Shown: positions 5,143-25,014 of the stretch, piece after piece
How positions within the stretch are numbered: position 1 is the stretch's first letter
Layout of the letters: the number at the start of each line of letters is the position of its first letter
DNA from: Cenococcum geophilum 1.58
Lineage: Eukaryota > Ascomycota > Dothideomycetes > Gloniales > Gloniaceae
Reading direction: 5' to 3'
NCBI GenBank assembly: GCA_001692895.1
Contig: KV748200.1
Coordinates: forward strand, 317,343-381,342
DNA: 64,000 bases
Translations under genes and position numbers: made by a program
Notes under the pieces: generated by a model
Databases searched by the model: none
The model's input: only the letters and a program-made list of their open reading frames with translations
What the model was told of the DNA's origin: nothing

Positions 5143-5162
5143 TAGTAAGCGAGCCAATAGCA

Positions 5163-5187
5163 ATTTTCCATCCCGGTAATGGAAAAT
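5163..5187. repeat. Palindrome P1 in Copia 3' region
   Basis: The arms ATTTTCCAT and ATGGAAAAT flank a 7-nt loop. A related hairpin, GATTTTCTAT/ATATAAAATC with an ACCGGGC loop, occurs in Gypsy element G4 at 58,187-58,213, again just before palindrome P2. Confidence 0.65.
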
Positions 5188-5260
5188 CCTAATTAGCCAG
5201 CTTAACGACTAGTGTTAGCAAAACTCCACACTGCTACCCAAATCGATTAGGCGTGGCGCT

Positions 5261-5320
5261 CTTAGCACAAATCTAACTAATTAAACAACTTTAACCAGTG
5301 GTTAAAGTTCTATAAGATCT
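5261..5320. repeat. Shared module (palindrome P2), copy in Copia
   Basis: The hairpin has arms AACTTTAACC (5,287-5,296) and GGTTAAAGTT (5,300-5,309). It is preceded by ATCTAACTAATTA. The same ~60-bp core occurs in Gypsy elements G2, G4 and G1 (see 56,832, 58,242 and 58,755). Here it lies about 300 bp inside the 3' LTR. Confidence 0.75.
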
Positions 5321-8300
5321 TAACTTCTCTAAATTTCCCTCTTAACCCAACCTTTAACTCATATATATAGAGTATTTATATTAATAAACGTCTCTAGTAC
5401 CTTATTTAGGTTTGCCTTTGTTATTATATCTACTAGGTTATCTTAGCTATTAATCTATCGGATCTTAAAGAGTTCTTAACGCTTATAGAACTACTAAAGT
5501 GCCATAATATTAATTATAAGGCGTTTTTATTTTGTGGTACTAAGCTTAACTAAACACTTATAAAGGGAATATAAGTCAGTGCACACGATTATAGGGATAG
5601 CGGGAAGTTTAAGTTGGTCTATAATTATCTTAAGGGTAGTTCCAATTACAATTGCTATATTAACTCCGCCAACCATTCTATATATCTCTAACGCTAGAAC
5701 GCTTTAAGTAACGCACTTGCTTTTAGTTAAGCTCTAATAAATAAGATTGCCGTAGATTGTAAAGTTATTCTCTTTAATAGATTTATTCGCGATAATAATC
5801 TTATATCTTAGTTAGGAGCTAAAATCTTTATTATTTATAAACAATCTATTAACAAATACGAAGAGCTTAGTGGTAGGAAGATTAATAGGCATATAGAGTA
5901 GTCCCCAATTAAGATAGTTTATTTGCTAGGAAAGATATTTATTTAGGGTAAGAATATTATCCTTAGTTGGTTCCTAGTATTAGGCGGCAACGGAGAGATT
6001 AAATAAAGCCTTAGGTTAATAGATAAAAGCAATATAAGCTCCGCAAGCGCGTTGCTCTATATATCCTTACTTTAAGGAATTAACGTTAATAACGTTAATC
6101 TTCTTACCTTAACCCTTCTAGCATAAAGTAATAGAATCCTTATTTAGGGAGAGGATATATCTATTAAAGAGTAATAGTATTATTAAATTAAGCTTTTCTT
6201 TTGGCTTTGCTATAAGATTTACCTTTACTAGCTTATCTTCTTTAAGAGCTGAGAATTAGTCGTCCCCTAAGATAATTATATTATTAGTTTATATACCAAC
6301 AATTCTAAATAGAGTTCCTATAGTTATAATAAGGAAGCAGGGATTAAATATAAAAGTAGTTATTAAAAGCTTCTCTTTATAGTGCTTACTGTAGGTAGCC
6401 CACTAGTAAGTTTCTACCTCTATAATTCTATATAATGGCTTAAGCATAACCATAATCATATCTTTAGGATACTGGTAGCGAATTTACTCTAGAAGGTATG
6501 CTAATATTAAGCGCTAAAGGTGCGTTTCTAATTAGGTATAGGCTTAAGTAATATCTTACAAATAAACCGCTATTCTATTCTTTATTAAGAAGGGAGCTAG
6601 CGCAATAATAACTTACTAATTAGCTTGTTAAATCGTAGGAGACTGCGTAAAAATTACCTCCTTACTATTATCGTTGTAGCCTTAGATAATAAGTCTTGAT
6701 TTCTTAAATAGGGCATTAGTAGCTTTACCCTTAATCTCATTAACTATTCTTAACTTAAAGATGCGAACTCTATCGAACTTAGTAGGGTTATACTTCTCGA
6801 ATTTAAAGATTCCTCTTGTAATAAGACTATCGATCTCCTACTTATTGGATGCTTAGAAAGGAGCTCCTGGAGTTATAATACAACCTTCCTTTTAGAGCTG
6901 TTTTGCGAGTTTAAAGTCAGCCTTTTCCTTAGCTGTTATAAAGGCCATTAATAACTTAACTCTATTTTTAATGGCGGCAACAAATTATTCTTTAAAATTA
7001 ATAAGATGTTGGCGATTTCGTAATCCCTTCGGGCGACCTCTGCCGCGTCGTGGTTATAGCGTATCTACTATAATTATATCGGGATCGTAGTCGCCTTTTA
7101 GAGTATATTAATTATAATTTTCTTCTAGGGCATCTTCTAGGGCATCCTATAAAGGCTTAGAATTATTATTTTTATAGTAAGGCTTAATAACAGTTAAATG
7201 GAATTAAGTAGGTCCGTAAGGCATCTAAATAGTGCAAGTTTAACCATTAATTATAATAAGTTAGTGTAGGCCTAACTATTCTCCCTTTTTACGCTATACG
7301 CGTACCTTAGACTAGAGTGGCAGATTAAGTATAGTTAAGGTGTTTAGGCTATTTCTTATTCCTAGTGCGTTGTTAACCTAGTGTGTGGCGTAGAGACGTC
7401 GCACCTTCTTTGTTACCTTATAAATAGCCTTAGCTTATTATATAATAAAGGGAGATAATAGAGAATCGTTAGTTATTTAAGGGTAGGCACTAAAGACTAG
7501 TAATGTAGGTACGAGTCTATCCGGGCCAGCGGAATTGTTAATAGCTTTAACAGCTATTTATAAGGTAAGTTCTTCGCTAGCGTCTTTTAGTTTTAAAGAG
7601 ATAATCTTATATACGCGGCGTAATAGTGCGTGATATTGTTTTACTTTTCCGATACTATTATATGCCTTAATAGGGACTTCCTTAACCTTAATTGCTATTG
7701 CCTTTATCTATTATTAAAACTCTATAAATAAGAAGTTCTTTTCTATATCATAAACGATTTAATTAGGGGGTCCTAAATAAATATTAATCTAGCATAACTA
7801 AAGGGTCTCCTATGCATTTTTAGCTAATATATCTTTTAAGAAACGCACGGCTTAGAAGGAGGTTAAGAAGTTAATAACTTAGAGCATTAGCTTGCCGCTA
7901 AGATATATAACGTTAATAATAATACAGAAGTTAAAGTTATAGTTATCCTTAAGGGTAAACTTAAATTGGCTAGGGGACTTCTGGTTTATTTAGTAGTAAT
8001 AGTAATACTTTATAAGATACTTAATTGCCTTAACCTTAACTTTATGGCCTACTTACTAAAGAACCCTAAGCAATTAATAAACAGATAGGTGGCTAAAATA
8101 ACGGTATAGTTAGCGTAATTCCAACTTAGTTAAATGGCTCTAAGTAATACTCTTTTCTAGTTAATAAAGGAGTAACTAGGGGTAACCCTACTTACGTATA
8201 ACGGGCACCCAATTATCTCCCTAAATAAGTATATTCTTAAGGTTATTAAGCCTAACGCCTAACTTATTTATATCTTTAATGTAAAATAGAAACGGAGTGT

Positions 8301-10628
8301 TTATAGGAATAATATAAAAACTAATATACTCTAAGGGGGTTTAAACCCTAATTATGCCGAGAGAGATTATAGTACCTTTGCTAAAATGAATTGTATACTA
8401 GCCTACCGTTAAATAGTTAATTTAAACAGAGCTATTAAGCTGCTAAAGGGCTCGAACTTAAGGTTCTCCTACTATAGATACTCTTACGGCTTTAGTATCC
8501 AGTATAATACTATAGAAGACGTTTACTAAGTATTTATCGTTAAAGGAAAACGCGGAGCTCTCCTTTGGCTCGTTAAAGATATTTAACTTTATAATAGAAT
8601 GGAGCGTAAATTGGTTATTAAGGATAATAATAGTTTATATACTATTTACCTTACCATACTTAGTAAAGTATTNGTTAGGNAAGTNGNNCTTAATTTCNAT
8701 ATCTATAAGNAGCTNTTTAGTNTTATTAACNTNACCNTTAAGATCTTTTANNCCTTTATATTAAACTAGGAAGCTTTAAAAGTAGGCCACAGTGACTTCG
8801 CAATTTTTAACATTTCTTATACTCTAACGGAACTTATTATATGCCTCTTTTCACTTATTAAGGGAGTGTCTAGTTAACTAGCAATTTAGCTTCTTACAAA
8901 CGTAGTATTTTTTTTAGCGATTACTTTAAAATAAACCTCCATAAGGACCTCTATAATTACCTTATAGTTAACGTTAATTATACCCTCTTCCATATTCCCT
9001 ACTGCGGCCACTATATATTTAATCAGTCCAGTTATAATTGTATTAGTCGGGAATACTTAATTAGGTAAGATTTTCGGTATAGAACTATTAAGATTCTTAT
9101 ATTTATATCGCAGTACCTATAGCGGAGCGTAGCTTAGTATATACTCCTTTAAACGTATCTATAGGTTTATATAGCGCTAAGTTGCACTTAGGAACGTTAT
9201 AGCATGCTAAGATAACCTAGTCCCTTAGGCTGTTCTTATTTTAGTAAGTTTTAGTAAGGCTACGTTAGATTTTCTAAAGTTTATTAAAGAGTAGTTAAAG
9301 GCACTCTAAACAAGTCTTTATTAGGTTAGAAGCAATAACTCTTTAGAATATAGTCTTCCGCCATTTGGATATATAAAGTTGGCGATTCTTATTAGTCTTA
9401 AAGTAGGCTCTAGTGAGCTAAAGCATTGTATTAAAGTTATAGTTTTTACCTATAATATAGTCGTAATAAAATATTGCCGCCCGTCCCTTTAATATAATAG
9501 AGAAAGCGTAATAGTACTAGTGGCGTTAAATTTTAACCTTATTATAACAGTTATAAAAGACCTATAGTTTTGCTCTAAGTATGTCGTACAGTTCTCCTCT
9601 AAACTTCTTCTCTTTGTCCAAATATACCTTTATTAGATTTATGACTTCTTGTAATAAAGGCTTACCGGTTAGCTAGAGTGGAGAAGGTAAAGGTAGAGCA
9701 ACTCTAAGTAGGAGAGTACCTCTAGGTAGGAGAGTAGCTTTAAGTAGGGGGTTAGCGTTCTAGGGGTTTTAATATAAATTAAAGTTGCCTTCTAAAGAAT
9801 ATGGGTTATTTTTAGGTTTCTATAGTTAATGTATAATCTTAGCTTCCGTCTATATTAGTTCTTCTATACTAGTAATAACGGCCTAAATATTACTAGCAAT
9901 TGGGTTACCATTCTTAGTAACGTATACCCTATTTCTATAGAGGAAGTCTTAAAAGTCCTAAACAATATTAACGTTGCCAAGTACCTAGGTATCAGCAGTC
10001 CATCCTATAAAATCCTTCCTAAAATACTCCTATAGTTATAAGTCGGCGTAGTATTTATTTTGGTAGAATATAATATAGTATAGGAGAAAGCCGTTAACTT
10101 GTTTTACGGTATAAGTTATTATATTAAAGGCGAATTCGTTCTAATCTTCATTAATGAGTTTCGCGTACTTAGCTACCCCTAGTAGTAAGGAGTCTTTTTA
10201 GTTATTTAAGGTAGGCGTAGCTATGTTTTTAGAGGGAGGGAAGTATTATTAGTGTAGGGATTGTTATTTGGTACGCGTTCGTAATATATATTTATTATTT
10301 AGTACGCGTTTATTATTTAGTACGCGTTTATAACATATATTTGCGGTTATAGGGCTTAGGATTAGTTCTAGCCTTAAATCGCGAAGACTTATAAAGCGTA
10401 TTATTCTGCGTAATAGACGCAAGAATCTGTAATCTTAGAAAGGCTTAGGACTAGTTCTGGCCTTTAAATCCTTAGATTTATAGAAGAGTTCTATTTAAGG
10501 TTTAGGACCAGTTCTAACCTTAAAAAACAGCTTCCTCTAGCATAAGTAGCACTAGTATAGTAGCTCGTCTCTTCTTAGTAAAAACCTAGCTGTTCTATAG
10601 TATAACTATAAAGTTAACCACTAATTAG

Positions 10629-10791
10629 TGTTGGATTATAAGGGGATATCACGTAGCTACGGTTTGTAGATAGTATAATAATTATTATTCTTAATTCTTA
10701 ATAGGAATGAGGAAAGGGGTAAGGAACCTAGGGTTCCTTACCACGCTAGGGCCATGTCGACACGTAACGGCAACTTGCCTTATTCCCAACA
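10629..10791 (-). repeat. Copia 5' LTR
   Basis: 163-bp partner of 4,789-4,951. Target duplication GAAAT follows at 10,792-10,796. Confidence 0.9.
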
Positions 10792-13690
10792 GAAATAAAG
10801 AAGGGACGACCCTAAACTATATAATATTGTAGTAAGAGTAAAGAAGCTCTTTTATAGAACTATTCGGCGATATAGGAAGCTCTACTAGGACAAATTCCTC
10901 GGTAATAATAACAATATATAAAAAGCGTCGAAATACCTTAATCCGTAGGCTATATCTGCATTTACTAGAATACTGTTAATTAAAAAGGCTAAAGAATAGG
11001 GAGAGGTTATTATAGAGAACCATAATATTATAAGAGAACTACTCTAGGTATTTTTTCCGGTCCTACCGCCATATAAATAAGAGGAGGACGCCACGGCTAG
11101 CTATAACTAATTGCCGTAGGAGCCCATCGCTAAACACAAGGTTAAAGCAGCTATATTTAGGGCTAGCCTAGACAAGGCTCCTAAAAGGGACGGCCTACCA
11201 GCTAGGGTATAGTAAGAGTTATAGCCTATACTAAGCGGTAAGATTACTACTCTTTTTACCAAATCACTTAAGATAGGGAAAGTACTATAGAAATAAAAGG
11301 TAGTAAAGATCGTGTCGCTATAAAAGCCGAAGTAGGGGGACTATACGGTAGCAAATAACTATAGGCCGATCTCCTTCCTCCTAACGCTAGGAAAAGCACT
11401 TAAATCGCTAGTGGTGGAGAGGATAGTATACCTAGTGGAGGAACATAGCCTACTACTTAAGACATACTTTAGAGCTAGGAAGTAAAGGTTAATAATATAT
11501 ACGCTATTATATCTCTATAAGGACGTATTTAAAGCGTAAAAAGAAAAAAAGACGCTATCTCTAGTATTATTTAATATTAAGGGTGCGTATAATAATATAG
11601 CTATAAAGCCGGAAATTAGGAGACTACGGCAGCGTTAAATACCTTTAATAATTATATAATAGGTGTAGGACTTCTATATAAACCGTTAAGCCTATATCCT
11701 AGTTAATAGATATATATTAAAGGTACAGGCGCTCCCATAGGTGGGTCTTCCATAGAAATTAGCACTAGCCCTAATACTCTTTCTATTCTTTAACGCGGAT
11801 TTTATATAAAGTATACCCAGAAATAGCAGCTCTATAGCCTTTATTAACAACTACTCGGTATAGGTTATAGGCCCTATAGCGGAGGAAAACACGCAGATTA
11901 TCTAAGGCGAGATTATACCAATGCTTAAGAAATAGGAGAGGACTAGTAGAGCTTAATTTAAAGCAAAGAAAACGTTATTTATCCACCTTACTAGATATAA
12001 AGAAGTGGGTAGGGATACTACTACGCCGCTCTAATTTAAAGGAAAAGGAATCCCCCTAATACAGGAAGTTAAAATCCTTAGGGTAATTCTTAATAAGGAG
12101 CTATAGTTTAAGGCACACCTAATAGATAAGGTAGGCAAGGCCACTAAGATAGCGCTAGCGTTATGTAGATTAAAGGGACTGCAGTTTAAGAGCGTTAAGC
12201 AGCTAGCTAAGAGCTTAGTTCTATTAATAGTAGACTATACGTCGCTAATATAGTACCTATTTATAATATAAGAATTAATATAGCTCCTTTAATAGGCGTA
12301 GAGGATTATAGTATAAGCTATTATTAGGGGGTTCTATACCGTCGCTTTACTAATAACGGAGGTAGAAGCCGGCTTACTCCCTCTTAAGTAAAGGCTATAT
12401 AACCAGGCCATCGCGTTCTAGGTGTTAATCTATAAACTAGGCAAATTATACCCTTATTAGATAATTCGAAGACAGAGGCTCTATAGATAATACCGATCGC
12501 CGCTCTAGAGGATAGTAAAGATATGCGAGGATGTCTAGGTAAATAGGGTGCTAGAGGTTAAACTATATATATACCTACTGTAGGTAGCTAAGCCTAATAT
12601 AGTAATATATAAGGACGAAGAGTATACTTAAGCTATTATTAAAGACTATAAGCCAGGGTAGGTTAATATATACGTTAATACATCGGTGCGTAATAGTAGG
12701 GCAGGAGTTAGTGTATATACTACGCCATCTAAAGCAATACTCTTAAAAATGGTAGTAAGCTTTAATTAGGCCGACGCTTACCTTATAGAGCTTTTAGTAA
12801 TTAGTAAAGCAGCTAACTAGCTATAGGACTCCACGTGTACGGCTATTAACTAAGTAGGTTTTCTAATACCTGCTTCTAGTATAAGAATATTCTCCAACTT
12901 GTAATTAGCGTTACTATTAGTATAAAGCTAGAGGGCTAGAGCCTACTAGGAAGTAGTTATAGAGATCTTAAAAAAGCTTTAGCTAAACAATGTTACGCTA
13001 TACTAGATTCTAGGCCATTTAGGGTTTATAGGAAATAAGAAGGCTAATAAGCTTGCTAAAGTAGCAATAAGACTAAAGAGCGAGGAGCTACTATAGAGAG
13101 ACGGCCTCCTATGGTACCTTATAACGCAAGCCTTAAAAAAAGCCAAAATAATAATAGAACCGCTTTTATTAGGAAGATCTAATACAGGCAAGTTTATAAG
13201 GAAGATTAACGCAGCACTCTACCTTAGAAAGGCTATAGGATTATATTAGCAGCTAATTAGCTTAGAAGCTGCTATTCTTACGTAGCTATAGACCGGCAAG
13301 TTATTTCTAAAAGAATATCTCCACAAAATTAATACATTAGAGACGGCGTTATATAACTATAGGCTTATAGAATTAATACAGCACTTCCTCTTCTCTTATA
13401 GGAGGTAGATATAGTAGAGGTTTAAACTAAAAGAGCAGTATAGAAATTAATTTAGGGATCTATTATATATATTAGGAGGCTACTTATACAGACAAAAAGG
13501 AGGTAGAAATATTAACGGCCTAATTAAGCGCTAGAAGCTAAACATTAGTATAGTTAAAGCTATAATTAAATTTACAAAAGAGACTAGACATTTATACTTA
13601 AGCGTATAAGATATAGAGAGTATAGAAGCCAACATTAATAAGCAAAAACTCTTAAGAATCCCTCCTCTAATTATCTAACCAAATATACCG
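10792..13690 (+). pseudogene. LINE ORF2, 3' part: reverse transcriptase and RNase H
   Basis: The reverse transcriptase shows FNIKGAYNN at about 11,570 (family FDxKGAFxNV) and the catalytic box as FINNYSV at about 11,838. The usual FxDD aspartates there read Asn, which fits G-to-A change and would destroy catalysis. The RNase H begins near 12,660 with YVNTSVRN (family YxDASVRNG), again Asp to Asn. The C-terminal LGGYLYRQKGGRNINGLI.R stretch near 13,470-13,540 is typical of Tad-like ORF2 ends. Stops are frequent. Confidence 0.8.
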
Positions 13691-14017
13691 CGAGCCTCCT
13701 CTACACGTGCCTCTACTAGTACGTCGCCGATTAAGAAGCGCATAACGCTGAAATAGCCCTGCGAACACAAGGCGTCAAAAACTACTTACCTAGGCTCGCC
13801 TCTAAACTCTAACTTTCTTCTAATAGTAACACATTACTTTCCTTTATTTTTTCCTTAGTTAAGCATGGTGTTAGGTAATAAATATATAGTTCTCATAGTT
13901 GGCTTCTAAACTAGAGCATGCATGTTAATGGCAGGAAGTATTTAGTTAGCGCTCTATAACGGCCCATACCCTAGATAGTGCATGGCCATAATAGAATATA
14001 CATACATACATACATAC
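13691..14017 (+). other. LINE 3' UTR and CATA-repeat tail
   Basis: Non-coding stretch ending in about five CATA units (13,998-14,017), a short tandem-repeat tail of the kind LINEs use instead of poly(A). The right flank begins directly after it. Confidence 0.7.
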
Positions 14018-14136
14018 GTGAAGTGGCGAGCTGAATTTTCAAAGGAGAACTCTTGAAAGAGGAGGATATTTATCTCAGACATTCTTTTAATCGAATCCTG
14101 GTCTTTCGTTTAGCTAGTTCCCGCTGCAAGGCAGCC
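14018..14136 (+). repeat. Right copy of direct repeat flanking the LINE
   Basis: Partner of 2,275-2,400. It is the less mutated copy, and normal base composition starts here. An ATG at 14,053 opens 70 codons across it, but nothing resembling a known protein is seen. Confidence 0.6.
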
Positions 14137-14240
14137 TACTATAATTATAACTTGATAGAATCACGGGGGAGAGAGTTGAGATGCGTAAACAATCGATTCA
14201 TTGCGGCACGGGGGGTTTTGCGCCACTCAGGGAGGGACGT

Positions 14241-14345
14241 TACGTCAGTACGCCTTACGTGGTGAGTGTTTATGGCTCTGCTGCACAAATTCGTGCTGCC
14301 ACTTCCAGTAGAGAGCTCATCTCGATTAAAGGTTGAGTGAGATGG
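14241..14345 (+). repeat. Diverged repeat fragment, copy 1
   Basis: About 70 bp aligns with 18,559-18,674 at roughly 70% identity, with shared blocks GTGAGTGTT and GAGCTCAT. In one frame both copies stay open and read VSVxxxAxxxRAATSxxELIS. This may be a relic of a duplicated exon, but I do not recognise the family. The rest of 14,137-14,624 shows no gene. Confidence 0.35.
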
Positions 14346-14624
14346 GACTGTTGTTCTGATTTGCTGTAATAGGTCCAACTTACTCCACTGGAGAAAAACA
14401 CTCTCACATTTCAGAAAGCTGATGAAGTTTATTCTCATCTTTCAGCACCAAAATCATACTAATAAGTACTACAGCCATCTAAAAACATTCACGGAGGCAC
14501 ACCGAGGACACCAAAACTTCAGTTTATATATAATCCAACGGTGCAGGGCGTAGTATGAGAATCAGGCAATGTGCTTGGCAATGTCACAAGATTGTCATGA
14601 AAATTAACCTTACGAAAATTCATT

Positions 14625-14801
14625 TCATAAGATAGAACACTTCCGAGGAAGACCACAAGGTCCTTCCTTGTCGTGGTCTACCTCCCCTGCAGGTGCTGAG
14701 CTATTCTGTGTTGTTCCAGCCGCTTCTGGTGGATTTGTATTTTCCGAAGCATTCTTTGTAACTCCGTTCCCTCCTACAGCTGTCCTTTTCCCGCCATCTA
14801 G
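14625..14801 (-). other. In-frame post-stop extension of the quinone oxidoreductase, ending in a CaaX-like box
   Basis: After the TGA at 14,802-14,804 the same frame stays open for 58 codons and stops at 14,625-14,627. The stop context is TGA-CTA-G, matching the UGA-CUA context that supports ribosomal read-through in fungi and animals. The extension is Gly/Ala/Thr/Pro-rich like a flexible linker and ends CGLPRKCSIL. The last four residues, Cys-Ser-Ile-Leu, fit a CaaX prenylation box (Leu favouring geranylgeranylation), with a second Cys six residues upstream. Alternatively a 63-nt in-frame intron (14,750-14,812, GTCAGC...CAAAG) would remove the stop, though its branch site is poor. It could still be chance. 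Confidence 0.5.
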
Positions 14802-15689
14802 TCAAGCGAAGCTGACCTTGGATACAGCACCGTAAAAGGCCTTACCCTGCTCCTGAGCGAGCTCCAACTCTTTAGCAGTGGGTTGGCGAGAACCGTCCGC
14901 ACCCTAATTAAAACAAAACTCAGCAACCGGAATATAGGTGAGGTGTTAAGGACATCTAATCTGCTTACAGAAAAAGTACCAGCACCCCAAGGCGAGCCGC
15001 CGCGGACTTCACTCACGTCCGCCAACAAAGCGAAAGTTGTCTTGTAACCAAGTGGCACGTAGATGATGCCGTGGTGAGCTAGAGTGCTCATAGCCGCAAT
15101 GGCAGTGGATTCTTGGCCCCCGCCAGGCTATATCTCATATTAGGCGCTTGTGATGATGAACGAGTCTTCGATGGGGAGAACATACAGTACCGGTGGACAC
15201 GAAAACACCCGCATATTTCCCCCAGTACGCTCCCGTCTGCCATTGACGCCCAGTGCTGTCCCAGAAGGCCTTCCACTGTGCTGGGAAATTACCGTAACGA
15301 GTGGGGATACCGAACAAGAAGGCGTCGTATTGCTCGAGAGTAGCAGGGTCCTTCAAGACTTCAATCTCCGCTGATTTTGGTGGAGCGTGCATCTTGCCGA
15401 GAATTTCTTCAGAAAGTGTCTCAGGGATCCTTTAATGCTAGTGAGTATTTTTCTGGGTTGTACGGAATTCGAAAAGCGGGCACACACTGATAGAGGGTGC
15501 AAGAGCCACCTGCGGCCTCAATACCCTTCTTCTCGGCCTCAGCTAGCTTCTGAATATGGCCATACATGGAGTACTGCGCAATTACAAACTATTAGCCATA
15601 CCACTGAGATGGAAAGTCGGAAAAACAGAGCTGAAAGTTGTATTATATCAACGGTAGCATACGAAGACAATTGCAATCTTGGGAGCCAT
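14802..15689 (-). CDS. NAD(P)H:quinone oxidoreductase, WrbA / Alt a 7-like flavodoxin-fold protein
   Basis: Five exons (15,663-15,689; 15,488-15,573; 15,186-15,429; 14,969-15,127; 14,802-14,903) give 205 codons plus stop, the family's usual length of about 204. All four introns are GT-AG, 58-89 nt. The product starts [16 protein letters not shown], the FMN phosphate loop of WrbA/Pst2/Ycp4 proteins. It has [10 protein letters not shown] at about residues 80-89 and STGTPGGGQE at 116-125, both FMN-site segments. The family reduces quinones by two electrons with NAD(P)H as donor, protecting against redox cycling. Members include the fungal minor allergens Alt a 7 and Cla h 7 and yeast Pst2, which is cytosolic to membrane associated. 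The start is fixed by the conserved MAPKIAI and by the first 27-nt exon. See the separate entry for the open frame after its stop codon. Confidence 0.95.
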
Positions 15690-16514
15690 GTTTAAAAGTA
15701 AGGCAGCGTTCGATCGGTCTGAAAGGTTCAATTGAGAAATAGAGGAATTGGGAGATCGGGAAATTGAGCAATAGAGTAGAGAACTGCGGTGTAGGAAGAG
15801 TATGAGAATGGAGTGACAACGAAGGGTGAGGGGCAGTTTATATGGCGTCAGCTAGCGATAGAGAAGCATAGACTTCCGACGTGCATCCGAGCCCGGCGGC
15901 ATGCTTGGCGTCTCAGCAGGGTTGCTTACATCACCCTTACAAATGGAGGGCGCCAGAAATGTCAGCGGGGCTCTTCGTGCTGCGACCGCGCTGTCATTCC
16001 GTCCAGTTGTCAGAAAGTATAATCAAATTTGTCAGCCTGATACCCCGCCCTGCCGCCAACATCGCCCGTGACCTGCACACTGTGTGCCTGGCAAGGAAGA
16101 CCATACTAACCGGATAGGGCAAGCCTTCTGTGTCTGCGGGGGATCGTCCGCCCATCTGCCGTGGCGCACATGGCGGCGCTCACAGCCTTGGCATCTTCAC
16201 AAGCTTTTGCGACAACGAGCTCTCGAGCTGTCTCGAGCTGTCTCGAGCTTCTACGAACCACTTGAAGAATATAAATAATGTCTGCGCCGCAGCCATTGTA
16301 TATTGTTAATTGCCAATCCTATCAACAATCTAGTCCTCGTGCAGATATATAGATATATATGTACATGCTCTCCGCTTGCCTGGGCCCGGATATCTCCACC
16401 CCCGCCCGAGTGATGCCCCCGACCCATCTTCTTCCCGTTGTGCGCCGACAGCGAAACGTAACAAACCGGACGCGCGGGACGACAAAGCAGCTTCGTGATA
16501 TCGATGAGAATGAT
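15690..16514. other. Intergenic region between the quinone oxidoreductase and DUF3712 genes
   Basis: This is upstream sequence of the minus-strand oxidoreductase gene and downstream sequence of the DUF3712 gene. Short open frames here have no protein-like features. The only structure seen is the 10-bp tandem repeat listed at 16,221. Confidence 0.6.
16221..16250. repeat. Three 10-bp tandem repeats (TCTCGAGCTG)
   Basis: TCTCGAGCTG occurs twice and then TCTCGAGCTT, head to tail, each with a palindromic CTCGAG core. It could be a binding-site cluster or a simple repeat. Confidence 0.7.
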
Positions 16515-17758
16515 TCACAGCGCTGTAATGTTTAACCCAATTTCGGCGAGAGCACTGCCGACGTCCAGATCGACGTGCAGTGTGTTGGACTGAATCGCAG
16601 CTTCATAATATTCAAGATGCTGCCCGTTGCTGACGGACGAGTTGCCAACAATGTCAAGCGGCAACATTCCATTCTTGAACGACGACGTAATCATCCCTAT
16701 CACCAACGACTGGTTGACGGTCGAGCGCATGGGAACTACATTGTCGCCAGGCCTGAGGACAAGGTCCGGGAGCAACGACTGTCCGATTGGCGTACCCTGA
16801 ACTGAGAGGTCCAATGTGACATTGCCGAGATCGACAGTTAAAACCGATGGGTTAGGTATTGAAACAGTGCCATTCATGTTGGAGCCGTCTGACGCGTTTG
16901 TGGTCAGGATATGGATGCCGGTAATGTTGAAGCCGCTAAGCTTGTTCAAACCTAGAGAAAGAACCTTTAGTAGGTAGTTAAATGCAGGGCAACGAGACCT
17001 CGGACCTTTCATTGTTACAACCTTGTTATAATCGACGTTGATTTTTGATAGGCCCTTCTGATGTAGACCGGTCCGCCCGCGGATAGCAATACGAAATTCA
17101 TCGCTGTTCATGACGACTTTGTTATAATCAATGAATTGATCCATGTTAGTGATATTTAGAGTTTGATCCACGGTAATAGTCGTTTCGTGTTCGACATTAG
17201 TTTTCGGGATTTCGACGTATCCAAAGGGTATAATATTTGGCTCAGTGTCCTCTAGAAAGAGAGCGGCTTGGAATGCGTCCAACGTGGGATGAAAGCTGCT
17301 ACCGCTACGTGCAACGCTGACTAGTTTCAGATGGATTGTCGAAGAAGTAGGGTCGCTGATATCTTGCACTTGGATCTCGAGCGTGGAAGCATTGACATCG
17401 TGTTGGGCTTTCTTAGGGATAGCCACGTATATACTGGAATCGGTTAGATGCAGTACTGGCACTTGAGTTGAAGATGGCGGGGCAATGCATCGGAAAGCAT
17501 TCTTGTGAGTAAATGAGGACGGAGATGTGCTTACATTGGTAGAACTATGACAAGAACAATCACGGCGAGGACCAGGCCATCGCACCACCAGAATTTTCTG
17601 CAGTGATTTTTCGCTCTTGGACGTAGGCCGGGTGTGTTTCCAGGAGGGAAAAGGGCAGCGCCGAAACCTCTTTTCTTTGGAAAGCTCGACTCGTTTACTG
17701 AGCTAGAGGGCGCGAGTTGGTCGGTCGTCTCCTTCACTGTAGGTTCATCTTTCTCCAT
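16515..17758 (-). CDS. DUF3712-type protein with N-terminal membrane anchor
   Basis: Exons 17,535-17,758, 17,006-17,433 and 16,515-16,951 give 362 residues. Intron 1 (17,434-17,534) has a GTAAGC donor and a CTAAC branch site. Intron 2 (16,952-17,005, 54 nt) is in frame with a TACTAAAG branch, so its retention would also keep the frame open. The start MEKDEP was chosen over an upstream in-frame ATG at 17,821 because it begins the charged cytosolic head usual for the family. Residues 1-56 are polar. A single hydrophobic helix spans about 57-78 (FWWCDGLVLAVIVLVIVLP), followed by a long beta-rich part with repeated N-x-S/T sites (NITNMD, NMNGT, NSSVSNG). This is the layout of fungal DUF3712 (PF12505) proteins, predicted type II membrane proteins of secretory or vacuolar membranes with no proven biochemical role. 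The family call is by recall of sequence pattern. Confidence 0.85.
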
Positions 17759-18449
17759 AGCGAGCAGAATTGGGAGTTGAGAAGGGACAAACAAACTGGA
17801 ATGGCAGTGAAAGCAAACCACAAACTATCGGTGCTCCAGTATTGTTAAAGCATGTGGAAGCACAGGCGGGGAGGCAAACGAATTAAGAATATGGAGCAAT
17901 GGACGTGAAGCACATGCTAGCGGGAGCGGACAGGAAATACGACGAAAGACTAGTTGGACCTTAGACTGGCAGGCCGGACGCTGGCAGATTGAGTGGCAAT
18001 CCTGATTGTTTGCATTATAGCCAATCAGCGCCCAGCAAGAGAAGCTTAAAGAGGAAGTTGCCCGAGATGATGTCTTGCGCGCGACCGGGGCAACTTTGCG
18101 ACAAAGGAGCCAGAAGCGTATGCTCGAGCCTCCACGACGAAACCGATGAAAGCAGCCACGCAGGAGTTCATGTAATTGATGCTGATTGTTGTTGTGACTG
18201 ATTGGATCTGGATGCATTGACTTGCCTCCCTACTTGCCTCCTTGCTTGTCTGCTCTGCATTCGCTTGCACCCATTCATTGGAAATCTGGCGCGCCACCGC
18301 ATGCCTACCCAACATTTCTCATCCACAAGACGAACTGCGCAAAATAATTCTGTTGCCACAAAGGAACCAAGATCCATGTCAGAGCAGAGCGTCGCCCGAA
18401 ACGTTGCTGCTAGCGTCATGGCTCGGCGGTTGCGGCGCGGCACAATCGC
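17759..18449. other. Intergenic region upstream of the DUF3712 gene
   Basis: No gene. AGCCAATCAG at about 18,019 is a CCAAT box usable by the HAP complex. A pyrimidine-rich stretch of CTTGC-type repeats (18,215-18,265) produces open frames on both strands that I regard as non-coding. Confidence 0.5.
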
Positions 18450-18824
18450 ATGAAATTTAGCCAAGTGTGGGGGAGTCGATCAAGATCAAGACAGGGAGGG
18501 CAAGGTCTGGCCTTGTTCCTGAGCGCTGAGCCCGACATGCCTGCTATTTTCTCAGCTCTACATGTTAATATGCCTCACGCAGTGAGTGTTCATGCCCCCG
18601 CCGTAAGAACCCGAGCTGCTACCTCCGGAAGTGAGCTCATTTCAGGCCTTACAATTGAGTACTTTAGTGAGATGAAGCCACTCTTTCAATTTATTGTGCT
18701 AGGACTGGCCTGGAATGAAGCTGGGACTCCTCTTGCGCGCTTGTACTGTGAAGCAAAGATTCCAATCTTCGAGAGGGCTGACGAGGTTTGTTATCATCTT
18801 TTAACATCAGAGCCATACCAATAG
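18450..18824 (+). CDS. Doubtful 124-codon open frame overlapping repeat fragment
   Basis: An ATG-initiated frame of 124 codons with no recognised domain, signal peptide or membrane segment. It contains the diverged repeat shared with 14,241-14,345 (here 18,559-18,674), so at least part of it is older duplicated sequence. No flanking introns are obvious. It may be a small hypothetical gene, an exon relic or chance. Confidence 0.2.
   Translation: MKFSQVWGSRSRSRQGGQGLALFLSAEPDMPAIFSALHVNMPHAVSVHAPAVRTRAATSGSELISGLTIEYFSEMKPLFQFIVLGLAWNEAGTPLARLYCEAKIPIFERADEVCYHLLTSEPYQ
18559..18674 (+). repeat. Diverged repeat fragment, copy 2
   Basis: Aligns with 14,241-14,345 at about 70% identity. Changes cluster at third codon positions in the frame reading VSVHAPAVRTRAATSGSELIS. 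Confidence 0.35.
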
Positions 18825-19347
18825 GTGTAATGGCTCATCTCCGTACTCCTCGCTGATGACGAGCGCATAATCGATATTTGCGTACTCAAGCTTATCCTCC
18901 ACCATCGGATGAGCATCCTTCTGGTTTGGTAGTTGGAACAAAAACATGTTAGTTGGCACACATCGGCACTCTACATACACGTATTGGCGTCGGAACGCAA
19001 CGCTCACATGAAATGGGTGCTTGCGTCGCTTGAGGAAGCTCTGAGCTGGATATATATAGCGAGCAGACTCACTGTGGTTCTCGTCGAGCCCAAGAAAGCT
19101 CTCAACGGCTTTTCATCGCTGTGGTGCTTTGCCGGGGAAAAGGTCTGCTGCTTTCGATCAGGAGTTTGTTTTTTTAGTCGTATGCAGAACGTACTCCCTC
19201 GGTGCCAGGTCATCAGGGAAGTTTCCCTTCCGCGGCTAAACTTCGGACAGCTACCTTGGTCTAGCGTCGGTTCTACACTGAGACTATCCGAGACTTTTAA
19301 TTCACAACACGCCCCCTCCTGATTTAAATAATACCCCATCGGAGCTA

Positions 19348-20363
19348 ATGGATAGTAGCGAAGATGTCGACGACTACATGTCCATGGTGATAATGGAGCC
19401 TACAAAACCCGAGAAGGAGACATCTATTCAGCGACAGGCCCGGAAGCGGCGTGAGGCAGGTGAATCCCTAATGCTGTTTCTGTGTTCTCTATTATCTTAC
19501 TAATATATATTCTGTAGGCTGAACTTAGAGCTCGTGTGAAATCGAAGGCCGAGAAGGAAGCAGACGAAGCGGCTGCAAGAGAGACCGCCCTGGCGACGTC
19601 GTTGGACATTTCCAACAAAGGTTTTAAGATGATGGCAAAATTTGGTTTCAAGCAAGGCGACACTTTAGGGGCGTCCAAAGATGGGCGTGCTGAGCCTATC
19701 AATATAGTCATGAAGGAAGACAAGGGTGGTATTGGACTCGACGCCGAGAAAAAGAGGAAATTTCGAGAGGAGATTGAGCATGAAGCTAAACGGGTCAAAG
19801 CAGAAGAGGGCGAATACAGGGAACGAATGAGATCGGAAAGAGAAGAGAGAAGAAAGGAAGGCCAATTGATCAATGCTCAAAAAGTTGCCGAGAGATTGGA
19901 TACTGAGGTAAAGGAGAATGGAATTCTTGCAGAGAAGTCAGATCAACTACCAGACCGCCAAGGGAAATGTTGGACATCTAGGGGATCTACAGAAACCCTG
20001 AAGAGCATGAACGTCTTGTGGCGCGGTCTATTGCGGCGTAGACTGGAGAAGGAAAGAGAGGGGAGAATGCGTTATGACCTAGCCCAGAGCCGCTCACGAC
20101 TCCCAACCTATACTGACCCCGATGAAGACGAAGACGATAGGCGGGCATTCGGCAGGGAGGAAAAGTGGAACATACTTGAGGAGGAGTTGGAAGAAGAGGA
20201 CCCGCAGTTGGAAGAGTTTAATGCATTGCCTGTCACCGAACGACTTGAGAGGTTGGTACTCTACCTACGCGATACACATCACTACTGCTTCTGGTGTAAG
20301 TACCAGTATCATGATGCAAGTATGGACGGATGCCCTGGAACTACAGAGGACGAACATGATTAA
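19348..20363 (+). CDS. G-patch domain protein, GPATCH11/CCDC75-like (G-patch plus DUF4187)
   Basis: Two exons, 19,348-19,455 and 19,518-20,363, give 317 residues. The acidic N-terminus MDSSEDVDDYMSM resembles the DYMSD start of GPATCH11. Residues 37-66 are a charged helix. The G-patch runs about 68-108 (NKGFKMMAKFGFKQGDTLG...EPI). A long Lys/Glu/Arg-rich coiled coil follows, then NVLWRGLLRRR and RLPTY.DPDED. The C-terminal DUF4187 motif is HHYCFWCKYQY...GCPG...EHD, a zinc-binding-like CxxC...C...H set. G-patch proteins activate DEAH-box RNA helicases. Human GPATCH11 is linked to RNA processing and kinetochore assembly, so a nuclear splicing-related role is likely. The intron is of GC-AG type (see that entry): only that junction gives the family sequence QARKRRE-AELRAR, while a GT donor 4 nt downstream would lead straight into a stop. 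Confidence 0.9.
19456..19517 (+). other. GC-AG intron of the GPATCH11-like gene
   Basis: The 62-nt intron begins GCAGGT after GAG and ends TGTAG. GC donors make up about one percent of fungal introns. The nearby GTGAAT donor at 19,460 would leave one extra base and create GGC-TGA across the junction, so it cannot make the conserved protein. Confidence 0.75.
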
Positions 20364-21371
20364 GAAATACGATTTACACACTACTTCCGGACATTGAATA
20401 TCACGGACATGCCATTACGGTTTACCGGGCGCTGTAGGAAGGTAATAGCTTGCGATATGGTATGCGAAAGCCGAACTGCCCGTGCTAGCCGCTCCGTGTT
20501 CTCTGCATGATCTATCTTGTATTGTTGACGGGTACACCGTGCCTATGTCCGGACTTGTCTGTTTGGAGCTAGAGGTATCGCATGTTTTGGATCAGTAAAA
20601 TGCCACATGGTCGACTGAATCTCTAATTCACGGGCGTGCCTCTGCGGTAGATTAAATGCATAGCCCGCCCGACGAGCTATCGCAATGAAGGTTCCAGCGA
20701 CCCAATGGTATGCAGTTGCTTTGTAGGTTCTCTTTGAATACCTAGCTGGATTCAGTTCGAATGACTCATTGATAGTGTATTTGCGCTTAGAGAAGGCAAA
20801 CCCATTAAGAGCATTTATGTGATTGTGCACTACGCTGCTTTGGTTTGGCAAAAGTAATGTTTTGCTGATCAAGGGATCTATGCTCAAACCTCCTTCCCCA
20901 GGCAGACAACGTCAGACGGTTTGCCACAGCTTGAGCCTGTCCTAGCCAAACCCCCTAGAAAAATAGCCTCAGAATTTTGAAATTAAAGTTAAACAGACTT
21001 AGCAATCTAAGTTAATTAATTATTAGCATATACAATCATTCCAATATTATTAATACCCAGGTACTTTTTAATAAATAGTTTATATCCCTTAACACGTCAA
21101 GGTCCTCAGAGTAAGTGGTCCGTGCGGAATACCGTTTTTAAAAAAACAACGCGTATATCTATATAGAATTCAATCGTCACACCGCCACCATGCTTTCCAA
21201 TCGTGCTAGAATTAATGTAGATCTTGTTCAGAAGACCTAATATAACCTTCCCCCAAATAAAATGGCGAAAAGAGCCCCCCAAACCCTAACCGTTCCGAAT
21301 TCGAACCTCTATTAATAATTAGGCTATCCCACCCCCCGACAGATGCCGCTAGCTCTAACGTTAATATATAC
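20364..21371. other. Intergenic, turning AT-rich toward the piggyBac relic
   Basis: A minus-strand open frame of 114 codons (20,543-20,887, start MSIDPLISKT) has no recognisable domain and I do not call it a gene. From about 20,940 the composition becomes AT-rich, suggesting transposon-derived sequence, but no ends are visible. Confidence 0.4.
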
Positions 21372-21690
21372 AACCCTTTCGAGTTATTCAGACCGTTCTT
21401 TACGGATAAGATTATGGATAAGCTTATAGAGTGGACAAATAAGCACACGGAGCTCTATCCGCTAGATAAGGAAGCAGAACACCTACGCGCATGGCAGCCA
21501 ACATGCAGACAGGAGCTCTACGCGTACTTCGGAGTGCTTATTCATATAGGAATTACTATAGAGCCGGCCATCAAAGACTACTGAAAGGATTTAAACACAC
21601 ATAGCAGCCTCATATTCCTGAGTACAGCCACCAAATTTAGCTGATCTGATTGGTTGACCCTTATCGATGACCTGAGGACCCGAATTGATG
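21372..21690 (+). pseudogene. piggyBac-type transposase fragment
   Basis: The frame reads NPFELFRPFFTDKIMDKLIEW...RAWQPTCRQELYAYFGVLIHIGITIEPAIKDY, the N-terminal start of the DDE_Tnp_1_7 domain (PF13843) of fungal piggyBac transposases. A stop at 21,582 replaces the expected Trp after KDY and two more follow within 130 bp. Similarity fades after about 21,620 and the catalytic aspartates are absent. No TTAA-flanked terminal repeats were found. It is a short dead piece of a DNA transposon, in the spacer upstream of the tRNA. Confidence 0.7.
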
Positions 21691-21817
21691 TGTTAAGGGA
21701 TAAAGAATGACAGGCTACTGAGTAGGCTGGTGGAAATGATACATATGATGCTCTATGAGGAAGAATCTAAGGGGCTCAGTGGCCTGAGAAGGTATCTACA
21801 AGATGGCCCACGCGCCG

Positions 21818-21841
21818 TCACGTGACCTATCACGTGACACG
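21818..21841. promoter_or_regulatory. Paired CACGTGA motifs
   Basis: Two CACGTGAC boxes about 14 bp apart (TCACGTGACC and TCACGTGACA). CACGTG is the core site of bHLH factors. It lies in the spacer before the tRNA. A regulatory role is a guess. Confidence 0.3.
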
Positions 21842-21939
21842 CCGCTGAACTCAAAGAGGCTGCCCAAGTACCCCTACCAACGAAGAATAACGTGCTTAAA
21901 AAGGAAAGCCTGCATGAACATAAAAAATGAATAGTGGCA

Positions 21940-22045
21940 TAGTCCCGACGGGGCTCGAACCCGTGACATCCGCATTACCAGATGGTGGTCATATAAGTCT
22001 GACGAATTATATAAGAACGGCGCGCTACCACTGCGCCACGGGACT
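21940..22045 (-). tRNA. tRNA with intron, probably tRNA-Ile(UAU)
   Basis: On the minus strand the acceptor stem AGTCCCG/CGGGACT is perfect. The D arm is GCGC-AGTGGTA-GCGC and the T arm ACGGG-TTCGAGC-CCCGT, with discriminator A. The anticodon loop reads CTTATA before a 34-nt intron (21,976-22,009) inserted after position 37, giving anticodon UAU. tRNA-Ile(UAU) carries an intron in many fungi. The anticodon stem CCGTT/TGCGG has one G-U pair and one U-U mismatch, so the isotype is less sure than the tRNA call. A T-run (ATTTTTTA) just past the 3' end is a Pol III terminator. Confidence 0.88.
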
Positions 22046-22626
22046 TAGAAACCCAAAGGGATTTCTCGAATTGATTTTCGAAAAACTTTCTACGACCTTC
22101 CCAAATTTTGATAAATATAGACGATGACTATGCACAACCCAAAACAGAATATGAAGAGGAGTTGGGAGAGCAACTTTCTGTGTAGGGTACCTGACGCTTG
22201 CCATTTATAGTAAGGTTGGGTCTTGATTGCATTGCAGTGTGATTGTGCCCGGGCGGCTCTGGCGGAGAGCGGGAGAAGCCGCTTCAACGTCACTTGGCCA
22301 CGGCAGGGCTAGCTAGGGACCTACAATATAGCTGCATTCCTTGTCCGTCAAATATAACCACTACTCACATCCGTTTCTTCTACCTATCATAAAGCATTTA
22401 GTTTGCACGCAGCTAGTGGCTGCACTTCAGGTATGAATCCCTCGGGGCCGATTGCGACCAGGAAGGTTCCAAGTCGCTTCATCCAGTGCTTTCCTCGGCC
22501 AGTTTCTTTTCATTTTGCACATCTCTTTGTTAGGATTATTTACTTTGCTTGAACTTCCTTGAATTACGCGCTATCATAATTTACAAAAAAAAGGCTTATT
22601 CCTCGCATAGATCTCGTGCTTCAACG
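22046..22626. other. Intergenic region between tRNA and DPP5-like gene
   Basis: Likely holds divergent promoters for the minus-strand tRNA and the plus-strand peptidase gene. An in-frame ATG at 22,549 precedes the chosen start of the peptidase. I see no other structure. Confidence 0.5.
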
Positions 22627-25014
22627 ATGACAGTTCGGGCGACAAAGTTCACGCCGGAGGTCCTCCTCAGTGTTCCAAGGCGGTCCGCAGGTGTACCCAA
22701 TACAGACGGATCTCGAGTCTTATACACCACCTCCACTTACTCCTTTGCAGAGCACTCAAAGACCTCCGAAATCCGGGTGCTTGATGTTGCTACTCAGAGA
22801 TCCACTCTCATAACTGACTCGGATGGAGCGAGTGAACCCAATTGGCTCGGCGATGACCATGTTCTTATTTTGACGCCTGGTGACAAAGGTTCCACAAAGG
22901 TCAAAGTTGGACAAGTCGAAAACTTCAAGAAAAGGTCAGTCATGCCAAACCGCTCGTTATATATCCCTTCGACTTAGTTGCGACTCGAAAATTCCTACGT
23001 TACCACATATCACTGAACCGAGCCTCGCAATTTGTCCCGTATTGATTAGTTTAACCTGTGTAATTGAGTCATCTGTTTTCCTAAACATTGGCTTAGACCC
23101 CTCAGGCTGAGAAAATTATAGCAGCTACACAGCTGGCATAATCGATGCACCTGCGAGCAACGTAAAACTTCATTTGCTAGAGGAAAATAAATTCGCATTG
23201 GCAATAACCGCGCAGGCCAACCCAGACGGTGATTTGTATAACCCTGAAACCGCGCCGAAGCCACACTCTTCGGCTAAATTGTACAAGTCCCTATTCGTTC
23301 GGCACTGGGATACTTATATAACACCAAATCGAAGTGCCATATGGCTGGGAATGATCTCAAGACCCTCGCCAAGAACTCACAGCTACGCTCAATATAGCCT
23401 TTCACCACTAGTAAATGCGCTGAAGGGAACTGCTTTGGAATCTCCTGTTCCGCCTTTTGGCGGTAGTGACCACTTTGATATCAGCTCCAGTGGATTGATA
23501 TTCGTCGCGAAAGACCCTGACTTGAATCCGGCCACACATACCAAAGTCAATGTTTATTTGATTCCAACAACAAGTTTCTTAGATTCAGCTCTTCCGAGCC
23601 CTAAGAAAATAGATATTTTCGGATTTGAAGGTGCAAGTACTGCGCCGGTCTTCTCTCCCGATGGCAAGCAAGCAGCTTTCTTGTCCATGCGGCAAGACGG
23701 ATATGAATCGGATAAGAACCAGCTATTCGTTGTTCCCGACATTCGCCGGCCATCATGGGTTATACACGCCTTTGCTTCGGAAGATAGAAAAGGAAAGTGG
23801 GACCGCAGCCCACAAACGATAGCGTGGAGCCGTGATGGCAAACAACTGTATCTGTTGGCAGAAGACAAAGGCAGAGTTTGCCTTTTCTCAGTGCCATTGG
23901 TGGACTTGATCAAGGCATCACTTCCACAGCTCATATTTAACAGTGGTACCATAACCGGTGAGAAATATTCTTGATTGATACTTCTTCCAAATTTAAATTT
24001 GACTTGTCATTAGATGTTCGGCCTTTGGTAACTGGAGATGTATTTATGTCCTCAACGAGCTTGGTTGACAACAGCACCTATCACTTGATTGATCGCTCCC
24101 AGCGCCACAACATCATTTCCTCCAATTCACGTGATGGATCTATGTTTGGACTATCCCGAAAGCAAGTCGCAGAGATCAGCTGGCCAGGGGCGGCGAAGAA
24201 CACGCAAGTGCATGCTTGGGTTGTCAAGCCATCTACATTCAACGAAACGGAAAAATATCCTTTAGCCTACCTCATCCATGGCGGGCCTCAAGGGTCATGG
24301 ACCGATGGCTGGAGCACCCGATGGAACCCAGCAGTCTTTGCCGAGCAAGGCTATGTAGTCATTTGCCCCAATCCCACCGGGAGTACTGGCTACGGTCAGG
24401 ATTTTACAGACGCCATTCAGAACCAATGGGGTGGGCTGCCTTACCAAGATATTTCCCAAGGTTTTGATTGGATCCAGGAGAATCTTCCATACGTAGACAC
24501 GGGTCGGGCCGTAGCGCTCGGCGCGTCTTATGGTATGTAAAGCTATCGCCTGAAACGCTAGTCTATTAATACGAAAACAGGTGGATATATGATAAATTGG
24601 GTCCAGGGCCAGCCCTTGGGTCGTAAGTTTAAGGCTCTCGTAACGCATGATGGTGTCTTCAGCATGGCTGGGCAGATGGCGAGCGAGGAGCTGTATTTCC
24701 CTTTTCATGAATTCAACGGGGCGCTCTGGAACAACCGAGAGGATTGGCTTAAATGGGACCCCTCGGCGTATACACATAACTGGGCAACACCTCATTTGGT
24801 CATCCACAGTGAGCTGGACTACCGGTTAACTTTGGCCGAAGGCTTGGCGGCGTTCAACACCCTCCAGGGACGAGGAGTTGAAAGCCAGTTCCTCACGTTT
24901 CCCGACGAAAACCACTGGGTCTTGAAACCAGAAAATTCTCTAACTTGGCATAGGGTTGTGCTGAACTGGATCAATAGTCATGTTGGACTACCGCTCTGTT
25001 CTGAAAGTAGCTAG
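22627..25014 (+). CDS. Dipeptidyl-peptidase 5-like serine peptidase (prolyl oligopeptidase family S9C)
   Basis: Exons 22,627-22,934, 23,122-23,957, 24,014-24,532 and 24,581-25,014 give 698 residues. The N-terminal part (to about 420) is the beta-propeller that restricts access to the active site, with repeats such as FSPDGKQAAFLSMRQDG and AWSRDGKQLYLLAEDKG. The C-terminal alpha/beta hydrolase begins near 440, with oxyanion region HGGPQGSW (about 470-477), nucleophile Ser553 in GASYGGYM (split by intron 3), Asp634 in HSELDYRL and His666 in DENHW. The triad is complete, so the enzyme should remove N-terminal dipeptides. No signal peptide follows MTVRATKFTPEV, so this is an intracellular type rather than the secreted DPPV allergen. 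Introns 2 and 3 are 56 and 48 nt. Intron 1 (187 nt) is long for this gene and could hide a tiny exon. The MTVRATKF start matches the family better than the upstream ATG at 22,549. Confidence 0.94.

What the first reader, a model, noticed from the sequence alone, without database searches (positions are those of the whole stretch)
14625..14812. Possible stop-codon read-through (or alternative splicing) adding a CaaX tail to a WrbA-like quinone oxidoreductase
Seen: the 205-codon gene ends in TGA-CTA-G, and the same frame then stays open for 58 codons, ending CGLPRKCSIL before a TGA. Known: UGA-CUA is the context described for efficient ribosomal read-through in fungi and animals, and fungi use both read-through and alternative splicing to make C-terminally targeted isoforms of metabolic enzymes, mainly to peroxisomes. 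A C-terminal Cys-Ser-Ile-Leu fits a prenylation box, and from memory the yeast relative Ycp4 is lipidated and membrane-bound. Inferred: the gene makes a soluble form and a minor membrane-anchored form, the anchoring counterpart of cryptic peroxisomal targeting. A 63-nt in-frame intron (14,750-14,812) would give the same tail by splicing.
Basis: partly seen in the sequence, partly recalled or inferred. Interest (0 to 1): 0.82.

Follow-up and report, generated by a model that had tools for sequence, protein, structure and literature searches.

The report
Leaky stop may lipid-anchor quinone reductase
A probably fungal gene for a quinone-reducing enzyme ends in a leaky type of stop signal followed by an in-frame tail that looks like a lipid-attachment tail, so one gene may make both a soluble and a membrane-anchored enzyme, which remains to be shown.

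Summary
On the minus strand a five-exon, 205-aa WrbA/Pst2-type quinone oxidoreductase (15689-14802) ends TGA-CTA-G. The frame stays open for 58 more codons, ending GPCGLPRKCSIL, a CaaX box with a second Cys six residues upstream. It looks non-random: of 1,670 stop trinucleotides in 14000-32000 only this one is followed by both >=58 open codons and a CaaX end, and TGACTAG occurs at 2 of 10,397 stop trinucleotides of the window. The tail has coding-type three-base periodicity, though its codon-usage score is not significant. Candida albicans Ycp4, a paralogue, carries a CAAX tail (PMC4556627). Best reading: read-through makes a minor lipid-anchored isoform. Five scans of viral and prokaryotic collections gave no orthologue, so conservation, the decisive test, is untested. 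A recent nonsense mutation in a Ycp4-type gene is not excluded.

The parts
15663..15689 (-). exon 1 of the WrbA/Pst2-like quinone oxidoreductase (ATG at 15689)
   Evidence: splice model giving an unbroken 205-aa protein
15488..15573 (-). exon 2
   Evidence: alignment to Pst2 5mp4
15186..15429 (-). exon 3 (the intron before it, 15487-15430, ends in AAG)
14969..15127 (-). exon 4
14802..14903 (-). exon 5, to and including the first stop; encodes the C-terminal QGKxFYxxVxK stretch shared with Pst2
14802..14804 (-). first stop codon, TGA
14798..14801 (-). CTAG directly after the stop: the UGA CUA(G) read-through context
   Evidence: context described in PMC4207609 and PMC4973966
14628..14801 (-). 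58-codon in-frame extension; no Phe, Trp, Tyr or Met
   Evidence: open frame; periodicity G = 19.4, p = 0.0035; composition
14655..14657 (-). Cys codon six residues upstream of the CaaX Cys (possible S-acylation site)
   Evidence: sequence; function inferred
14628..14639 (-). terminal Cys-Ser-Ile-Leu, CaaX-type prenylation box
   Evidence: sequence; CSIL described as a prenylation end in plants (PMC12609287 passages)
14625..14627 (-). second stop codon, TGA
14619..14624 (-). AATGAA directly after the second stop, possible poly(A) signal
   Evidence: role recalled and inferred
14774..14845 (-). best in-frame alternative intron: GTAAGG donor, TTGAC branch-like site overlapping the stop, acceptor GACAG (ending 14780) or CTGTAG (ending 14774); 66 or 72 nt
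   Evidence: 93 of 2,000 shuffles hold such a candidate
ACAAAG)

Best explanation
One gene makes two forms of a flavodoxin-like NAD(P)H:quinone oxidoreductase. Most ribosomes stop at the first TGA and release the complete 205-residue soluble enzyme. A small share insert an amino acid at UGA, because it sits in the leaky UGA-CUA-G context, and translate 58 further codons. That adds a hydrophilic linker ending in GPCGLPRKCSIL. The terminal Cys is then prenylated (geranylgeranyl is favoured by the final Leu) and the upstream Cys may be S-acylated, so this minor form sits on a membrane, probably the plasma membrane, where it can reduce membrane quinones. SHOWN here: the gene, the stop context, the open extension, its periodicity and the CaaX end. 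INFERRED: that read-through happens in this organism, its level, the lipidation, the location and the benefit.
For: (1) Exact TGA-CTA-G. CUA after UGA was sufficient for efficient read-through in Ustilago maydis, and a G at the next position is noted in many of the genes of that study (PMC4207609); in human cells the consensus alone gives about 4% (PMC4973966). (2) Joint rarity of length and CaaX end, and rarity of TGACTAG. (3) Codon-position structure of the extension, G = 19.4, p = 0.0035; six windows of the core give 6.0 to 18.4; three stretches starting at 14626, 14560 and 14500 give p 0.30, 0.06 and 0.20. (4) The shift in base composition fits the second stop better than the first (LLR 8.6 versus 3.5; best 13.4 at 14658, inside the extension), and AATGAA follows the second stop. 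(5) The host fits: 62% identity to Pst2, TIGR01755 193.5 bits against a cut-off of 132.5. C. albicans Ycp4 has an extension of about 90 aa ending in a CAAX box and gave a plasma-membrane signal as a GFP fusion (PMC4556627); yeast Ycp4 is listed with Ras1 and Ras2 as a substrate of the acyltransferase Erf2 (PMC5364179). (6) CSIL ends the Arabidopsis enzyme PGL2, described as prenylated, and a ROP1 fusion (PMC12609287). (7) The 205-aa form aligns with Pst2 to residue 197 of its 198, so the first stop is a sensible end.
Against: No orthologue in five scans of viral and prokaryotic collections, so conservation is untested. The in-frame codon-usage score is not significantly above shuffles (13% of 2,000 reach it). 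154 of 3,000 shuffles are open too. 6.0% of 397 windows in the AT-rich and 2.7% of 621 in the gene-rich region reach the same periodicity. The base before the TGA is T: a passage of PMC12233894 says U there goes with lower read-through in mammalian cells and that A at -1 and -2 raises it in yeast; here these are T and C. No RNA structure after the stop beyond chance (z = 0.09). Pst1, Pst2 and Pst3 of C. albicans also gave plasma-membrane signals, so a lipid tail may not be needed to get there. A coding tail does not prove read-through: splicing or a recent nonsense mutation would leave the same trace.
Confidence: 0.55

Rival explanations
1. Alternative or constitutive splicing of an in-frame intron removes the stop and joins the CaaX tail. 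The best candidate is 14845-14780 or 14845-14774; the unspliced mRNA makes the soluble enzyme.
For: GTAAGG donor, TTGAC branch-like site 22 or 28 nt before the acceptor, frame kept, 66 or 72 nt, within the size range of this gene's introns (58-89 nt). Fungi use both splicing and read-through to attach cryptic PTS1 signals (PMC4973966 passage, citing Freitag 2012, which I did not read).
Against: 93 of 2,000 dinucleotide shuffles hold such a candidate. The stretch is not intron-like: GC 0.51-0.52 against 0.37-0.43 in the four introns of the gene, purine 0.63-0.66 in the last 35 nt against 0.37-0.57.
Confidence: 0.17
2. Recent nonsense mutation: the gene was a Ycp4-type enzyme with a constitutive CaaX tail, and the TGA is new in this lineage (or a sequencing error), leaving the tail as a remnant.
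For: C. albicans Ycp4 has a CAAX tail. The tail has coding-type periodicity but low GC3: 19 of 58 against 31.1 expected from the core, whose own 58-codon windows do not go below 0.52, as could follow relaxed constraint.
Against: The mutation would have to fall at the end of the conserved domain and, by chance, in front of CTAG (TGACTAG: 2 of 10,397 stop trinucleotides). The remnant has no further stop and its CaaX end is intact. 58-codon windows with GC3 of 0.33-0.34 occur in 4 of 6 other open frames tested, so the low GC3 is not exceptional.
Confidence: 0.16
3. Chance: an ordinary gene end with an accidental open frame in its 3' UTR.
Against: Length plus CaaX end in 5 of 60,000 simulations, before counting TGACTAG; periodicity; a family member with a CAAX tail is known.
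Confidence: 0.12

Closest known systems
Ycp4 (flavodoxin-like quinone reductase of Candida albicans and Saccharomyces cerevisiae)
   Same: same enzyme family; in C. albicans an extension of about 90 aa ending in a CAAX box and a plasma-membrane signal (PMC4556627 passages); the yeast protein listed as an Erf2 substrate (PMC5364179 passage)
   Different: in the passages I read its tail is described as part of the protein, with no mention of a stop before it; here the tail lies behind TGA-CTA-G
Pst2 and E. coli WrbA (NAD(P)H:quinone oxidoreductase type IV)
   Same: the 205-aa form: 62% identity to Pst2; TIGR01755
   Different: the solved Pst2 chain (198 residues) ends within a few residues of our first stop and has no tail
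UGA-CU(A)(G) read-through genes: Tpi1, Rpe1 and Art1 of Ustilago maydis; human LDHB and MDH1
   Same: same kind of stop context, and a metabolic enzyme with a targeting signal in the extension (PMC4207609; PMC4973966)
   Different: these add a peroxisomal signal; here it would be a lipid anchor, and nothing has been measured
Drosophila Syx17 read-through extension
   Same: an extension with a farnesyltransferase signal, in a ribosome-profiling set (PMC3840789 passages)
   Different: signal predicted by a server in that paper; an animal gene, not a quinone reductase

Membership tests
NAD(P)H:quinone oxidoreductase type IV (WrbA/Pst2) | full-length match to the curated family model | tested here: met
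   TIGR01755 193.5 bits, cut-off 132.5; NF002999 200.4, cut-off 141
NAD(P)H:quinone oxidoreductase type IV (WrbA/Pst2) | FMN binding and quinone reduction | not testable with these tools
   needs the protein; 62% identity to Pst2 suggests it
Ycp4-type CAAX-tailed flavodoxin-like protein | C-terminal extension ending in a CAAX box in the translated frame | tested here: inconclusive
   the box is present but behind a stop codon
Ycp4-type CAAX-tailed flavodoxin-like protein | lipidated and membrane-bound | not testable with these tools
   motif only
UGA-CUA(G) functional read-through genes | UGA followed by CU(A)(G) | tested here: met
   TGACTAG at 14804-14798
UGA-CUA(G) functional read-through genes | open in-frame extension with a targeting signal and signs of coding | tested here: met
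   58 codons, CSIL end, periodicity p = 0.0035; but codon-usage score not significant
UGA-CUA(G) functional read-through genes | context and extension conserved in orthologues | tested here: inconclusive
   no orthologue found in viral contigs or prokaryotic genome contigs; no fungal genome collection was on hand
UGA-CUA(G) functional read-through genes | extended protein detected | not testable with these tools
   needs ribosome profiling, a reporter or mass spectrometry
alternative splicing past a stop | in-frame GT-AG intron with branch site spanning the stop | tested here: inconclusive
   14845-14780/14774 qualifies, so do 93 of 2,000 shuffles; not intron-like in composition

The most novel reading that the evidence does not exclude
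Programmed stop-codon read-through serves as a lipid-anchoring switch: a single quinone-reductase gene does the work of an untailed Pst2-type and a CAAX-tailed Ycp4-type enzyme, and the share of anchored enzyme is set by termination efficiency. PMC4207609 (passage) argues that sorting by read-through at UGA CU is likely regulated by oxygen, through hydroxylation of a ribosomal proline; for an antioxidant enzyme that would be a direct feedback.
Probability: 0.45. Interest if true: 0.75.

Novelty: new variant of a known kind. Interest (0 to 1): 0.6.

Why it matters
The fungal read-through cases that I read about send enzymes to peroxisomes. If the tail is translated here, the same leaky stop would deliver a lipid anchor, which widens what read-through is used for. 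It would show how a fungus can have soluble and membrane-bound quinone reductase from one gene. It also suggests a cheap genome-wide screen: ORFs ending TGA-CT whose extension ends in a CaaX box.

Tried and rejected
Orthologues: three scans of viral contigs (11, 2 and 165 pattern matches) and two of genome contigs (594 and 114 pattern matches) confirmed no relative at tblastn E <= 1e-3. These collections hold viruses and prokaryotes, so this says little about fungi. No whole genome is held for the window.

RNA stimulator downstream of the stop: not supported (fold z = 0.09; no Rfam match at E <= 1 in 14550-14950).

Codon usage: the in-frame score of the extension is -0.037 (other two forward frames -0.123 and -0.110; core 0.184), reached by 13% of 2,000 shuffles. 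In the same call the reverse-strand frames score higher (0.214, 0.396, 0.380); the background used there was the forward strand's composition (A 0.33, T 0.17), which does not fit the reverse strand, so I do not use those values.

GC3: low in the tail (19 of 58; core windows of 58 codons 0.52-0.64) and tempting as a sign of rare translation, but 4 of 6 other open frames contain 58-codon windows as low as 0.33-0.34, so I dropped it. Those six were stop-to-stop frames, not checked gene models.

Literature: ten searches listed no paper that I recognised as describing a fungal read-through CaaX isoform or a WrbA-type enzyme extended by read-through. Four of these lists were cut (15 of 57; 15 of 26; 10 of 105; 20 of 50), one search found no paper, and only open-licence PMC papers are held. 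Of 13 papers opened I saw found passages, and of PMC4207609 also one whole section. PMC10822820, PMC9348620 and PMC8778642 added nothing that I rely on. Freitag 2012 was not read.

Recalled, from no call: the fungal splice-site and branch-site preferences behind 'good' and 'weak'; that the QGKxFY stretch is the last helix of the fold; AATGAA as a fungal poly(A)-like signal.

Full report
WHAT IS THERE. The feature lies on the minus strand. A gene starts at ATG 15689, has four introns (15662-15574, 15487-15430, 15185-15128, 14968-14904) and encodes 205 aa to a TGA at 14804-14802. The protein is a type IV NAD(P)H:quinone oxidoreductase: TIGR01755 193.5 bits against a cut-off of 132.5; best solved relative yeast Pst2 (5mp4, E 5.5e-77), 62% identity. 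The alignment runs to residue 197 of the 198 of Pst2 and to residue 201 of our 205, so the 205-aa form is a complete enzyme. The small introns and this relative make a fungal origin likely; the organism was not identified.

THE TAIL. After TGA comes CTAG, and the frame stays open for 58 codons (14801-14628) to a second TGA at 14627-14625. The peptide is [58 protein letters not shown]: a hydrophilic, probably disordered linker without Phe, Trp, Tyr or Met, then a Cys, basic residues and a CaaX box whose last Leu favours geranylgeranyl transfer by the CaaX rule (PMC12609287 passages; PMC11152559 passages, which do not mention CSIL). CSIL ends the Arabidopsis enzyme PGL2, described as prenylated. 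A second Cys near the CaaX Cys resembles dually lipidated proteins; yeast Ycp4 is listed among Erf2 substrates (PMC5364179 passage).

IS IT MORE THAN CHANCE. In 14000-32000 (both strands), 122 of 1,670 stop trinucleotides are followed by >=58 open codons, and 7 of the 1,315 with >=4 codons end in a CaaX-like box; one does both, this one. In a first-order Markov simulation 3,002 of 60,000 reach 58 codons, 113 end in CaaX and 5 do both. TGACTAG is found at 2 of 10,397 stop trinucleotides of the window. The CaaX pattern was set after seeing the case. 154 of 3,000 dinucleotide shuffles of the extension are open, so length alone is weak. The codon positions of the extension differ in base composition (G = 19.4, p = 0.0035); six overlapping windows of the core give 6.0 to 18.4, and three stretches starting at 14626, 14560 and 14500 give p 0.30, 0.06 and 0.20. 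6.0% of 397 windows in the AT-rich region and 2.7% of 621 in the gene-rich region reach the same value. The composition change fits the second stop better than the first (LLR 8.6 versus 3.5; best 13.4 at 14658, inside the extension; 300 permutations, 95% point 7.1, maximum 11.4), and AATGAA follows the second stop. Against: the in-frame codon-usage score is -0.037, with a shuffle mean of -0.096 (13% of 2,000 reach it). Taken together I judge it likely that the tail is, or recently was, translated.

HOW IT COULD BE JOINED. Read-through: CUA after UGA was sufficient for efficient read-through in Ustilago maydis, mainly through the first two bases, and the authors note a G at the next position in many of their genes (PMC4207609). 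In human cells UGA CUA (G) alone gives about 4% (PMC4973966). Two features do not help: no stable RNA structure follows the stop (z = 0.09), and the base before it is T, which a passage of PMC12233894 links to lower read-through in mammalian cells. A better candidate is 14845-14780 or 14845-14774 (GTAAGG, TTGAC, GACAG or CTGTAG), where the branch-like TTGAC overlaps the TGA itself. 93 of 2,000 shuffles offer a candidate of that quality; its GC (0.51-0.52) and purine content are unlike the four introns of the gene (GC 0.37-0.43), and it would cut out [14 protein letters not shown] (the 72-nt version keeps one Gly), six residues of which Pst2 shares. Intron 2 of this gene seems to use an AAG acceptor, so AAG ends cannot be ruled out here. 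I rank read-through first, splicing and a recent nonsense mutation next, chance last.

WHAT IT WOULD DO. C. albicans has four such enzymes; Ycp4 carries an extension of about 90 aa ending in a CAAX box. GFP fusions of the four gave plasma-membrane signals (Pst2 and Ycp4 expressed from a strong promoter; some cytoplasmic GFP was seen too), and reduction of ubiquinone is proposed to protect the membrane (PMC4556627 passages; PMC5753163 passages). Pst1-3, for which the passages mention no CAAX box, were at the membrane as well, so a tail is not the only way there. A read-through isoform would give one gene both forms. Stiebler et al. argue that sorting by read-through at UGA CU is likely regulated by oxygen; for an antioxidant enzyme this is attractive but untested.

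PRECEDENT. Read-through and splicing of cryptic peroxisomal signals in fungi are described (PMC4207609; PMC4973966). A predicted farnesyltransferase signal in a read-through extension was reported for Drosophila Syx17 (PMC3840789 passages), and prenylation sites were among the features screened in human extensions (PMC4359377 passage). In ten searches of the held library (four of the lists cut) I saw no fungal case of a CaaX box behind a leaky stop. Hence 'new variant of a known kind', if real.

LIMITS. No fungal genome collection was on hand; five scans of viral and prokaryotic collections gave no relative.

Noticed in passing
2001-14000 and 32001-64000: Long AT-rich stretches (GC 0.26-0.40 per kb, against 0.41-0.57 in 14001-32000) flank the gene-rich part; they recall the repeat-rich, mutated compartments of filamentous ascomycetes (recalled, not tested). 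The gene studied lies at the edge of one.
   Followed up: no
15430-15487: Intron 2 of the quinone reductase appears to end in TTAAAG, an AAG acceptor, with no YTRAY branch-like site found in it. By eye I saw no other acceptor that keeps the frame.
   Followed up: partly
21940-22045 (-): A tRNA by Rfam (51.5 bits, 106 bases, so probably with an intron) that ARAGORN, run with the bacterial code, did not report.
   Followed up: no
16515-17702 (-): A 395-codon open frame with DUF3712 (124 bits), upstream of the quinone reductase gene on the same strand.
   Followed up: no
19518-20363 (+) and 23111-24540 (+): A G-patch plus DUF4187 frame, and a PD40 frame overlapping a Peptidase_S9 frame, probably one gene joined by an intron.
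   Followed up: no
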